A stretch of DNA of 64,000 nt from Microbacterium testaceum (GTDB lineage: Bacteria; Actinomycetota; Actinomycetes; Actinomycetales; Microbacteriaceae). Shown here piece after piece: positions 44,458 to 63,491 of the stretch. Positions within the stretch are counted from its first letter, which is position 1. Every line of letters begins with the position of its first letter. A program made the translations under genes and the position numbers. The notes under the pieces are model-generated. The model did not search any database. It saw only the letters and a list, made by a program, of their open reading frames with translations, and had not been told where the DNA came from. The stretch lies in contig NZ_QDFT01000016.1 in assembly GCF_003075375.1 (NCBI RefSeq), positions 1 to 64,000 of the forward strand, read 5' to 3'.

Positions 44458-44559
44458 ATGACTGTCACTGCGCGTTCTCTGTCCGCCCGGGAGGCGAACG
44501 GGACTGCCGGCATGATGATGCCCGGCCGCGCGGTGATGTGTTGTCGAATGTGCCGCTAA
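44458..44559 (+). CDS. Cys-rich leaderless leader peptide ORF (33 aa)
   Basis: 33-codon ORF, MTVTARSLSAREANGTAGMM ending VMCCRMCR, with tandem TGT TGT and a third Cys codon just before the TAA. Its ATG sits seven bases after the CATAAT box, so it is probably read from the 5' end of the message. Short leaderless ORFs ending in Cys codons are known cysteine-responsive attenuators in actinobacteria. The Cys codons lie in the loop of a possible CGCGGT / ACCGCG hairpin. The next gene, 176 bases on, is a winged-helix regulator and not an obvious sulfur gene. Translation and attenuation are inference. Confidence 0.55.
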   Translation: MTVTARSLSAREANGTAGMMMPGRAVMCCRMCR

Positions 44560-44735: not shown

Positions 44736-45494
44736 ATGTCGCTCTCCGCCGTTCTCGACCGCCCCCAGACCGCTTCCGCCGCCGCGTCGTCGCCCGCTCC
44801 CCGCCTCGCCGTCCCCGCCCGACGCCCCGCGAGCGCCGCCCCCGCCGCCGCCGCGGCAACCCCCGCTCCCGAGCCCGCCCGAGCGGCCTCCCCCACCGCT
44901 CCCCGCGGCTTCGCGCTCTACGTCGGGATCGACGAGGCGAAGGCCGCCGCCGCGGGCGTGAGCCTGGGCACCCTTGTCGAGGCCCTGCGCCGCACGCTCG
45001 GCGAGCTGGCCCCCGCCGCCGAGACCTACGCCACCGTCGCCCTCGCTCCCGTCGGCTCCGGGGGGCGCGACGTCGACGTCGTCCGCCTCGCCCTGCACGA
45101 GCCCTCCGCGGTGGCCCGCACCAAGGACGAGCCCGTCGAAGAGGACCGCGCCCCCGGCGGCGTCGTCGTCGACATCTCGCGCAAGCGCGTCCTGATCGAC
45201 GGAGAGTCCGCCGCGTTCACCTTCAAGGAGTTCGAGCTGCTGCAGTACCTCGTGCTGCGCGAGGGCCGCACGATCGAGCGCACCGAGCTCGTCGCCTCCC
45301 TGTGGGAGGGTGCGACCGACGACGAGGCTCCCGGCGAGCGGACGATCGACGTGCACGTGCGTCGCCTGCGCGCCAAGCTCGGGGTGTACGAGGACATCGT
45401 CCGCACCGTACGCGGCGTGGGCTACCGCTTCGACCGTCACGCGGACGTCTCGATCCGCTACGGCCACGGCACGCCCTCGCCCGACCGGTTCTGA
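44736..45494 (+). CDS. OmpR/PhoB-type winged-helix protein without receiver domain
   Basis: 252 aa. The first ~60 residues are Ala/Pro-rich and low-complexity, then a small domain (RGFALYVGIDEAKAAAAGVS ... VDVVRLAL) of unknown kind, and from about 150 a classical OmpR/PhoB DNA-binding domain: FKEFELLQYLVLREGRTIER, DDEAPGERTIDVHVRRLRAK and VRTVRGVGYRFD. No phosphorylatable receiver, so it is not a response regulator. ATG 44736 is chosen (GAAGGA nine bases upstream) over an in-frame start at 44700. Probably under control of the promoter and Cys-rich leader upstream. Confidence 0.88.
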   Translation: MSLSAVLDRPQTASAAASSPAPRLAVPARRPASAAPAAAAATPAPEPARAASPTAPRGFALYVGIDEAKAAAAGVSLGTLVEALRRTLGELAPAAETYATVALAPVGSGGRDVDVVRLALHEPSAVARTKDEPVEEDRAPGGVVVDISRKRVLIDGESAAFTFKEFELLQYLVLREGRTIERTELVASLWEGATDDEAPGERTIDVHVRRLRAKLGVYEDIVRTVRGVGYRFDRHADVSIRYGHGTPSPDRF

Positions 45495-56957: not shown

Positions 56958-57113
56958 GTCTGCATGCTAGCTCCGACCTCCGACATTGCCCCGGTCAGAC
57001 GGACTTTCTTGTGCACAGACCAGCGCTCGAGCACCCCGTGGAGGAGGGGCGGGGACCCGGACCGCTCGGCCCGCGAGCCACTCGACCTATGAATCACGAA
57101 AGCGTGACGAGAT

Positions 57114-57247
57114 CCTCTTCCGCTCCGTTACCTCACCGTTATAGAGTGTGATCACGGTAGTTGTTTTGCTGTGGCAGCTACCGACATGTGATTGCAGGAC
57201 ACTCTCGTGCAGGAAAGGGCCGGTCGGGAATCTCCCGACCGGCCCTT
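57114..57247 (+). repeat. Direct repeat copy 1 (promoter plus small RNA)
   Basis: About 135 bp that recur at 58087-58224 with roughly 80-85% identity by eye. Contains CTCCGTTACCTCACCG, TATAGAGT and the whole probable small RNA with its terminator. The 56958-57113 stretch ahead of it holds only the HNH gene promoter region. Confidence 0.85.
57154..57247 (+). ncRNA. Putative small RNA, copy 1
   Basis: About 94 nt, unknown class. A 5' hairpin GGTAGTTG ... CAGCTACC (57156-57182) with a U-rich loop, a conserved single-stranded part (GACATGTGATTGCAGGACAC), then a terminator with a perfect 15-bp stem AAGGGCCGGTCGGGA / TCCCGACCGGCCCTT (57215-57247). A TAGAGT -10 box is at 57142-57147. The other copy keeps both stems while the loops change; the hairpin swap CAG/CGG keeps pairing through a U-G wobble. 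It is upstream of a phosphatase gene, but the second copy is not upstream of any plus-strand gene, which argues for a free RNA and not a riboswitch. Confidence 0.6.
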
Positions 57248-57281
57248 CATCCGTCCGCGACCATCCCCATCACCGATGCAC

Positions 57282-57333
57282 CACCCCGCCCCGGCCCGGC
57301 CCGCCCCACCCCGCCCCGCCCCGCCCCGCCCCG
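57282..57333 (+). repeat. CCCCG-type low-complexity tract
   Basis: Runs of CCCCG and CCCGG in the leader of the phosphatase gene. No gene is seen in it. Confidence 0.5.
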
Positions 57334-57405
57334 GCGACGCAACCGAACAGCCCGTATCAGGCAGCCCCGGATGCCGACACCCCGACGACACGCGAGGATG
57401 AAACC

Positions 57406-58026
57406 GTGAAGGACGCAGACCTGACCGAACCCGACGGCCGCATCGTGCTGGTGCGGCACGGAGAGACCGAGTGGAGCCGCACCGGCCGCCACACCGGCCT
57501 CACGGACATCCCGCTGACCGAGACCGGGGCCTACAAGGCCGAGCTGGCGGGAACGCTGCTCGCGACCCGGCGCTACGACCTCGTTCTGACGAGCCCGCTG
57601 CAACGCGCCGTCGAGACCGCCACGCGCGCCGGCTACCCTCGGGCGCAACCCGAGCCGCGCCTGGTCGAGTGGGACTACGGCGCCTTCGAGGGCATGACGA
57701 CTCCCGAGATCATCGAGCAGGTCGGGCACCCCTGGACGATCTGGCAGGCGGGCGCCCCGGCCGGCGCCACCCCCGGGGAGTCGATCGCCGAGGTCACGGC
57801 CCGCGCCGCCTCATTGCTGGACGAACTGCGCCCGCGCGTGCGCGCCGGCGAGCAGATCCTGCTGTTCTCGCACTCCCACTTCCTGCGCGCCCTGGCCGGC
57901 ACCTGGCTGGGGCTGACCGCCGACGGGGGGCGCTACTTCGTCCTCGGCACGTCGGCGGTGAGCGAACTGGGCTTCGAGCACGGTTCCGAGGTCATCACGC
58001 AGTGGAACCACGTGCGCGGACGCTGA
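57406..58026 (+). CDS. Histidine phosphatase family protein (Gpm-like)
   Basis: 206 aa. RHG motif VLVRHGETEWSRTGRHTG at about 14-31, LTSPLQRAVETATRAGY, WDYGAFEGMTT, and the second His in LLFSHSHFLRALAGTWLG. Closer to acid phosphatase/phosphoglycerate-mutase-like enzymes than the phosphatase at 15259. Substrate unknown. GTG 57406 is chosen because GAGGA lies seven bases upstream. Placed between the two copies of the small RNA. Confidence 0.92.
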   Translation: MKDADLTEPDGRIVLVRHGETEWSRTGRHTGLTDIPLTETGAYKAELAGTLLATRRYDLVLTSPLQRAVETATRAGYPRAQPEPRLVEWDYGAFEGMTTPEIIEQVGHPWTIWQAGAPAGATPGESIAEVTARAASLLDELRPRVRAGEQILLFSHSHFLRALAGTWLGLTADGGRYFVLGTSAVSELGFEHGSEVITQWNHVRGR

Positions 58027-58086
58027 GGCACCCCGGATGCCGCCGAGGCGACCATCCGAAAATTCATCACGGAAATATAACGACGA

Positions 58087-58224
58087 CCTCTTCCCCTCCG
58101 TTACCTCACCGTTATAGAGTGCTCGCACGGTAGTTGTTTTGCTGTGGCGGCTACCGACATGTGATTGCAGGACACTCTTGGTGCAGGGACAAGGGCCGGT
58201 CGGAAGCCTCTCCGACCGGCCCTT
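58087..58224 (+). repeat. Direct repeat copy 2 (promoter plus small RNA)
   Basis: Second copy of the 135-bp unit at 57114-57247, after the phosphatase gene and before the convergent metallophosphoesterase gene. The 58225-58343 stretch after it holds nothing recognisable. Confidence 0.85.
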
Positions 58225-58229
58225 ACTCT
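58127..58229 (+). ncRNA. Putative small RNA, copy 2
   Basis: Same layout as copy 1: TAGAGT box at 58115-58120, hairpin GGTAGTTG ... CGGCTACC, conserved ACATGTGATTGCAGGACACTC, and a terminator with a perfect 14-bp stem AAGGGCCGGTCGGA / TCCGACCGGCCCTT (58191-58224), followed by ACTCTTTCG. Compared with copy 1, both the loops and the region before the terminator changed by small indels, which would shift any reading frame; the stems did not change pairing. No target is proposed. Confidence 0.6.
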
Positions 58230-62891: not shown

Positions 62892-63059
62892 GGCGGAGCC
62901 ACCTTCGTCTGGGGGGATGCTCCGACCATAGGAATCTCATCGGAGACGCACGTGAACGCTGACCGCCGGCCGGGTGACCGACGGGTGACGCGACGCGCTA
63001 CCCGCGTGTGATACCCGCGCGCGGGGCTCGCCCGCCCCCATGAGCTCTATGGTTTAGGG

Positions 63060-63491
63060 ATGACCGATCGACGCCTCGCCGTGCAAGCCTGGGAGAACCT
63101 CTTCCGCGCGCAGCACGAGGTGTTCGAGGACATCCGTTCGGACTTCGACGGCACCGAGCTCACGCAGGCCGAGTACGACGTGCTGCTCACGGTCACGCGT
63201 GCCCCGGGCATGACCGCGCGTCTGCGCGACGTCACGGGCAACATGCTGATCAGTCAACCGAGCGTTTCGCGACTGGTGGAGCGGATGGTCACGCGGGGGT
63301 TGCTGATCAAGTGCGCCGACCCCGAGGACGGTCGTGGCTCGCTCGTGACCGCCACCGAGGACGGGGCCGTCGTCTTCCGCCGCCTCGCGGCCGCCCACGG
63401 CCGCTCGATCGCCCAGCGGATGGCCCGCCTCGACAACGACGAGCTCGCACAGCTTCAGGCCCTCACGGCCAAACTGCGCGGCCGCGCCTGA
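63060..63491 (+). CDS. MarR-family transcriptional regulator
   Basis: 143 aa. Winged HTH of the MarR type: [50 protein letters not shown], the wing [16 protein letters not shown], and a C-terminal dimer helix. ATG is exactly six bases after TATGGT (63048-63053), a leaderless start. Target unknown; the metallophosphoesterase gene diverges on the other side. Confidence 0.92.

What the first reader, a model, noticed from the sequence alone, without database searches (positions are those of the whole stretch)
57114..58229. Tandem copies of an unknown structured RNA around a phosphatase gene
Two ~135-bp units carry the same TAGAGT box, a 5' hairpin, a conserved single-stranded block and a long terminator stem. 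Between the copies, loops and spacers change (including indels that would break any frame), while the stems stay paired: CAG to CGG in the hairpin keeps a U-G pair, and the terminator stem is 15 bp in one and 14 bp in the other, both perfect. This is the pattern of a functional RNA. Copy 2 is not upstream of a plus-strand gene, so a cis-acting role is unlikely for it. I do not recognise the class.
Basis: partly seen in the sequence, partly recalled or inferred. Interest (0 to 1): 0.78.

Follow-up and report, generated by a model that had tools for sequence, protein, structure and literature searches.

The report
Family-wide small RNA of Microbacteriaceae
Two nearby copies of a small non-coding RNA gene belong to an undescribed RNA family found across one bacterial family, and its promoter carries a box like that of the cell-wall regulator MtrA, so it may be an RNA arm of cell-envelope control.

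Summary
In detail: 57114-57250 and 58087-58224 are two copies (89% identical) of one structured RNA unit. The interpretation (functional RNA, class unknown) holds and can be extended. No Rfam family matches. A covariance model finds it in 191 of 198 genomes of the genus (1-3 copies); BLAST finds it in 209 of 299 genomes of the family; outside the family, 5 genomes gave weak hits that are only terminator-like. The stems of hairpin 1 and of the terminator covary (19 of 25 pairs in the structure changed on both sides), while the loops are nearly invariant: an RNA of about 95-100 nt with three hairpins. The TAGAGT box is most likely the -10 of its own promoter. Over it lies an 11-bp direct repeat, GTTAYCNNNNCGTTAY, that fits published sites of the response regulator MtrA and recurs before secreted peptidoglycan-hydrolase-like, GDPD, DivIVA and WhiB genes. 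The phosphatase gene is incidental. A MarR-type gene follows the RNA in 22 of 40 fetched loci, so a cis role is not general. Best explanation: a free-standing, MtrA-controlled, trans-acting sRNA of the envelope regulon. RNA family: near certain. MtrA control: likely. Base-pairing role: inferred; no target found.

The parts
57093..57108 (+). copy 1, upstream direct repeat ATCAC-N6-GTGAC (possible activator-position box)
   Evidence: sequence; upstream alignment
57127..57142 (+). copy 1, MtrA-type box GTTACCTCACCGTTAT overlapping the -10
   Evidence: consensus from papers
57142..57147 (+). copy 1, predicted -10 element TAGAGT (TANNNT)
   Evidence: TANNNT in 98 of 98 upstream regions; TSS not mapped
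57155..57183 (+). copy 1, hairpin H1 (stem covaries, loop constrained)
57184..57212 (+). copy 1, conserved block with hairpin H2 (UUGCA/UGCAG) and loop GGACACUCUCG
57215..57247 (+). copy 1, intrinsic terminator, 15 bp stem
   Evidence: covariation
57406..58026 (+). histidine phosphatase gene between the copies; judged incidental
   Evidence: Pfam His_Phos_1
58066..58081 (+). copy 2, upstream direct repeat ATCAC-N6-ATAAC
58100..58115 (+). copy 2, MtrA-type box GTTACCTCACCGTTAT overlapping the -10
58115..58120 (+). copy 2, predicted -10 element TAGAGT
   Evidence: TSS not mapped
58128..58156 (+). copy 2, hairpin H1
58157..58186 (+). copy 2, conserved block with hairpin H2 and loop GGACACUCUUGG
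58191..58224 (+). copy 2, intrinsic terminator, 14 bp stem
44736..45494 (+). orthologue of c1, the receiver-less OmpR-type winged-helix gene that precedes the RNA in other genera
   Evidence: start chosen from homologues
63060..63491 (+). orthologue of c0, the MarR-type gene that follows the RNA in many relatives

Best explanation
Each copy is a free-standing small-RNA gene of an undescribed RNA family of the Microbacteriaceae. RNA polymerase starts just after the TANNNT box and stops at the terminator, giving an RNA of about 95-100 nt with three hairpins (inferred from sequence, not mapped). The GTTAYC-N5-GTTAT repeat over the -10, with a second repeat upstream in 72 of 98 members, is bound by the response regulator MtrA, so that the RNA is made or withheld with the cell-wall regulon: the -10 position predicts repression, the upstream one activation. 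The RNA then acts in trans: the nearly invariant loops UUUGCUGUGG (H1) and GGACACUCUUGG (H2; its core CUCUU can pair with Shine-Dalgarno-like purine runs) probably pair with mRNAs of envelope genes and change their translation. Shown: RNA family, structure, spread, and the box with its regulon-like company. Inferred: transcript ends, MtrA binding, sign of control, base-pairing mode. Unknown: the targets.
For: Covarying stems, constrained loops. Present in 191 of 198 genus genomes, 178 of 180 good ones, and in 209 of 299 family genomes by BLAST, with diverged members added by the covariance model. Second copies lie among other genes and the terminator hairpin is kept in the aligned members, so it is a separate transcription unit. 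Box: 70 hits against 3 for the reversed control in 31 family genomes, most of them chosen for having the RNA; 41 of the 70 are at the RNA itself. Upstream repeat in 72 of 98 regions, reversed control 0 of 98. The other 29 box sites include M23 peptidases, CHAP proteins, an SLT-like protein and its likely relatives, DivIVA, WhiB and GDPD genes. In genomes where c1 was not found the box precedes M23, Rpf-type transglycosylase and WhiB genes. The box fits published MtrA sites and the position rule (PMC13189361, passages; PMC3353115, passages). The window's genome encodes MtrA, 385 bits over a cut-off of 300.
Against: No transcript data were available. MtrA and GlnR boxes look alike (PMC10704036, passages), and c1 is a third OmpR-type candidate. 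No box was found in 4.7 kb around mtrA. 15 of the 29 non-RNA sites lie by other genes or inside genes, one of them in a 16S rRNA gene. In 30 further genomes the enrichment is weaker: 28 hits against 8, and four of the 28 are near-copies of one sequence in G457. 26 of 98 members lack the upstream repeat. A duplex search against 119 genes of the genome gave nothing better than shuffled RNA, so base pairing is untested. H2 shows no two-sided compensation, and in L085 it is replaced by another hairpin.
Confidence: 0.6

Rival explanations
1. A protein-binding RNA: the invariant loops are recognised by a protein (a sponge or polymerase-binding RNA) and not by mRNAs.
For: Loops and H2 are nearly invariant across a whole bacterial family, more than simple seeds need; no mRNA target was seen.
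Against: No RNA family of any kind matches in Rfam; the RNA is short.
Confidence: 0.2
2. The RNA is mainly a cis-acting leader (attenuator) of the MarR-type gene c0.
For: In 22 of 40 fetched loci c0 follows on the same strand.
Against: In the window neither copy precedes c0 (c0 is at 63060); in the other 18 of 40 loci the script did not find it there; copies with other neighbours keep the structure; the terminator arms vary while the upstream block is nearly invariant, so no conserved antiterminator is apparent.
Confidence: 0.08
3. The promoter box is read by c1, the receiver-less OmpR-type protein next door, or by GlnR, and not by MtrA.
For: c1 ends 117-454 nt upstream of the RNA's core motif in 12 of 40 loci; OmpR-type proteins bind such 11-bp repeats; GlnR boxes are alike; the nearest solved structures to c1's DNA-binding domain are OmpR-family regulators (8hml, 8hig, 8hih), which I recall as GlnR.
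Against: The box occurs before cell-wall genes in genomes where c1 was not found at E 1e-20; the company fits the MtrA regulon.
Confidence: 0.25
4. A short coding gene or leader peptide.
For: Conserved ATGTGATTGCA block.
Against: One-base indels inside the block; the longest closed ORF in the aligned RNA is 1-26 aa and differs between members; covarying stems.
Confidence: 0.02

Closest known systems
Mcr7, PhoP-dependent ncRNA of Mycobacterium tuberculosis (PMC4038636; title and start of abstract seen)
   Same: An actinobacterial small RNA controlled by a two-component response regulator tied to the envelope.
   Different: Other lineage and regulator; no sequence comparison was made beyond the Rfam search. 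Its effect on the TAT system is in the title; our targets are unknown.
MtrA regulon of Corynebacterium and Streptomyces (PMC3353115, PMC13189361, PMC5650626; passages)
   Same: Direct-repeat box of the same core and 11-bp period; cell-wall peptidases and a resuscitation factor in the regulon.
   Different: The passages name only protein genes; no sRNA target was seen in them.
Rfam PtaRNA1 (RF01811)
   Same: Best weak match, 24.8 bits.
   Different: Gathering score is 47; it is the GC-rich terminator hairpin that aligns, and also on the opposite strand.
6C and Ms1 RNAs of actinobacteria (recalled)
   Same: Conserved actinobacterial small RNAs.
   Different: No Rfam family at all reaches its threshold in the window.

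Membership tests
any Rfam 15 family | score at or above the gathering threshold | tested here: not met
   0 matches in the window; best weak match 24.8 of 47 bits
MtrA regulon | direct repeat GTnACC-n5-GTnAC / RTAAC-n6-RTAAC in the promoter | tested here: met
   against the consensus
MtrA regulon | MtrA encoded in the genome | tested here: met
   385 bits, cut-off 300
MtrA regulon | same box at known types of MtrA target (cell-wall hydrolases, WhiB) | tested here: met
   10 of 29 non-RNA sites in the family (9 hydrolase-like, 3 of them by eye and 1 below the Pfam cut-off; 1 WhiB);
MtrA regulon | MtrA binds the box and changes transcription | not testable with these tools
   needs footprint/ChIP and RNA measurement
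trans-acting bacterial sRNA | own promoter and intrinsic terminator, not tied to one downstream gene | tested here: met
   (promoter inferred, no transcript seen)
trans-acting bacterial sRNA | conserved complementarity to mRNA targets | tested here: inconclusive
   119 genes of one genome only, no signal over shuffles
cis-regulatory leader of the MarR gene | always upstream of the same gene type | tested here: not met
   22 of 40 loci; neither copy in the window
mobile or phage-borne RNA | copies on phages, plasmids or viral contigs | tested here: not met
   no match in the phage, plasmid and viral-contig collections

The most novel reading that the evidence does not exclude
A small RNA conserved through a whole actinobacterial family is a direct, possibly dual-site, target of MtrA and is the post-transcriptional arm of the cell-wall regulon, comparable in role to the envelope-stress sRNAs of enterobacteria, in bacteria where few conserved sRNAs have a known network position (the last clause is recalled).
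Probability: 0.45. Interest if true: 0.75.

Novelty: new member of a known kind. Interest (0 to 1): 0.6.

Why it matters
It adds a well-supported RNA family that Rfam lacks, found in most sampled genomes of a large family of soil, water and plant bacteria. It comes with a testable regulator and a clear experiment in Microbacterium laboratory strains. If MtrA controls it, the actinobacterial cell-wall regulon has an RNA branch that protein-only regulon maps would miss.

Tried and rejected
Rejected: Rfam families; coding; phage, plasmid or viral copies; members outside the family (5 genomes with 30.6-36.7 bits show only a terminator-like hairpin; L100, L102, L103 and L104/L105 judged not real, by eye for those printed there). 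Led nowhere: duplex search of the RNA's loops against start regions of 119 genes of the genome; box around mtrA or before c1; sigma-70 consensus promoter (none found); papers on small RNAs of Microbacteriaceae or Clavibacter, or on MtrA with sRNA (listings only): none seen on this RNA. Caveats: the extraction for alignment A2 required GTGATTGCAGGACACTC with up to 2 changes, which inflates invariance there; A3 adds members found without it. The upstream regions were taken with a pattern that held the box (2 changes allowed), so the box there is not independent. Gene calls in fetched loci are my own (GC-based ORF choice), starts uncertain. In one search the loose RNA marker gave false marks (for example in L107 and L140) and missed the true RNA in L123 and L124, so the adjacency counts are approximate. 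L352, L338 and L337 have no Pfam match; I group them with L351 (SLT, 20.2 bits, below its cut-off of 21.3) by the look of their C-termini.

Full report
What is there. The window holds two copies, in the same direction, of one unit: 57114-57250 and 58087-58224. They are 89% identical and are the only full ones that BLAST finds in the 3.36 Mb draft genome (two further hits are the terminators read on the other strand). The core 21-mer, with up to 3 mismatches allowed, is found twice and never in 100 shuffles. Both copies fold better than all 200 shuffles. A His_Phos_1 gene (57406-58026) lies between them, a DUF222/HNH gene before and an LTD/metallophosphatase gene on the opposite strand after.

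Not a known family. The window has no Rfam match at gathering scores. The best weak hit, PtaRNA1 at 24.8 of 47 bits, rests on the terminator hairpin and appears on both strands.

Spread. BLAST finds the unit in 146 of 149 genomes of the genus, 135 of 135 good ones, and a 103-base part in 209 of 299 genomes of the family, 191 of 268 good ones, 61 of 85 genera. A covariance model from 30 sequences finds it in 191 of 198 genus genomes, 178 of 180 good ones. By my hand count of that table 148 have one copy, 41 two and 2 three. The two good genomes without it are G611 (rated 100% complete) and G741 (96%). At order level 27 of 297 genomes matched: 22 of the own family with at least 52 bits, and 5 outside with 30.6-36.7 bits that on inspection are only terminator-like hairpins. 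Of 25 genomes that earlier searches had missed or hit weakly, 12 had a model match and I judge 8 real, including genomes of 1.4-1.7 Mb. A further diverged member (L375) was seen only because of its promoter box next to c1. The 80 listed include Microbacterium, Cryobacterium, Agromyces, Clavibacter, Curtobacterium, Leifsonia and Rathayibacter, genera of the Microbacteriaceae; I recognise no named genus of another family among them, and two metagenome bins are named only as Actinomycetota and Actinomycetales. Phage, plasmid and viral-contig collections had no match.

Structure. On 36 diverse members and a structure that I named, 95.9% of cells pair, against 28-50% when the partner is slid by 1 to 3 columns. 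19 of 25 pairs have changes on both sides: 7 of 7 in H1, 12 of 13 in the terminator, 0 of 5 in H2, where only one-sided G-U changes occur (RNAalifold on the first 30 sequences gave 20 of 32 pairs). Mean column conservation is 0.69 in the H1 stem and 0.82-0.83 in the terminator stem, but 0.97 in the H1 loop, 0.96 in the H2 loop, 0.94 in the linker, and 0.98 and 0.94 in the H2 arms. So H1 and terminator stems are kept by shape and the loops by sequence. No reading frame is kept. L085 has another hairpin in place of H2.

Promoter. 98 distinct upstream regions, taken with a pattern that allowed two changes in the box, all hold exact GTTAY-N6-GTTAT and a TANNNT element. In the window TANNNT is TAGAGT, 7 nt before H1, so it is most likely the -10. 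The 8 diverged model hits, found without the pattern, show the box too, L099 with a change. A second direct repeat, RTNAC-N6-RTNAC, lies within 45 nt upstream in 72 of 98 (48 of 62 in the genus, 24 of 36 in others), against 0 of 98 for the reversed pattern, and in both window copies.

Company of the box. Exact GTTAYCNNNNCGTTAY occurs 8 times in 4 genomes against 1 for the reversed pattern, and 62 times in 27 genomes against 2. Most of these genomes were chosen because they have the RNA, and 41 of the 70 hits are at the RNA. Of the other 29, nine lie at or near the start of genes for peptidoglycan-hydrolase-like secreted proteins (M23 twice, CHAP three times, SLT-like once below cut-off, three more by eye), three near GDPD, one near DivIVA and one near WhiB. 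The remaining 15 have other neighbours or lie inside genes, one of them in a 16S rRNA gene. In 30 further genomes, 24 of them outside the family, the box has 28 hits against 8; outside the family and where c1 was not found it has 14 against 3, four of the 14 being near-copies in G457. These 14 include sites before two M23 peptidases, an Rpf-type transglycosylase with LysM (266 nt away), a WhiB gene, a GH18 gene and a subtilase; the others have no such neighbour.

Regulator. Published MtrA sites are GtnAcC-n5-GTnAcn in Streptomyces (PMC13189361, passages) and (A/G)TAACAATttn(A/G)TAACAAT in C. glutamicum, with repression when near the -10 and activation when upstream of the -35; the regulon includes mepA, mepB, nlpC and rpf2 (PMC3353115, passages). 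mepA and whmD are named as MtrA regulon genes in another paper (PMC9602371, passages). Our box and its company fit this, and the genome has MtrA. GlnR boxes are similar (PMC10704036, passages). c1, a receiver-less OmpR-type protein (Pfam Trans_reg_C only), is the upstream neighbour of the RNA in other genera, but it is also present in family genomes without a detected RNA (for example G611, G195, G199), and the box exists where c1 was not found. MtrA is the best candidate, not a proven one.

Locus. In other genera the order is trkH-trkA-proC-CDF-tadA-upp-c1-RNA-MarR-photolyase, in whole or part (names from reading the translations; Pfam for c1 and MarR). The window keeps c1 (44736-45494) and MarR (63060-63491) on either side of the RNA copies, but no longer adjacent. 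MarR follows the RNA in 22 of 40 loci (11 of 20 in the genus) and c1 precedes it in 12 of 40 (none in the genus) (approximate; in L123 and L124, which the script missed, c1 is adjacent by the coordinates). Where two copies exist they lie, in the pairs that I looked at, from 0.2 kb (G085) to 57 kb (G730) apart. This speaks for an RNA that works in trans.

Function. The H2 loop core CUCUU can pair with Shine-Dalgarno-like purine runs (by inspection). A duplex search against 119 genes did not beat shuffled sequences, so targets remain unknown and the base-pairing role is inference.

Verdict. A real, undescribed (by Rfam and by the listings searched), family-wide small RNA with a predicted place in the envelope regulon; a new RNA family of a known kind.

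Noticed in passing
window 44458-44559 (+): A 33-aa ORF ending in MCCRMCR just upstream of the c1 gene, behind TTGACG/CATAAT-like hexamers; it looks like a cysteine-sensing leader peptide (recalled pattern).
   Followed up: no
L327, L341, L350, L378: Glycerophosphodiester phosphodiesterase genes in four genomes (three genera) carry the same MtrA-type box just upstream: candidate MtrA targets.
   Followed up: partly
G611 (searched): A genome of the same genus rated 100% complete lacks the RNA but keeps c1 and the box at a GDPD gene.
   Followed up: partly
L085 (G197): A diverged member in which the H2 region is replaced by a different, GC-rich hairpin while H1, promoter and the GGTGCAAGGG segment are kept.
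   Followed up: no
L131 (G001 contig C6, 10,189 bp): A small contig with two inverted copies of the RNA, similar in part to the chromosomal region L132; duplication or assembly product.
   Followed up: no
window 57280-57334: A C-rich low-complexity tract after copy 1.
   Followed up: no
window 62974-62989: GTGACCGACGGGTGAC, a GC-rich match to the MtrA consensus, about 70 nt upstream of the MarR gene; may be chance.
   Followed up: no
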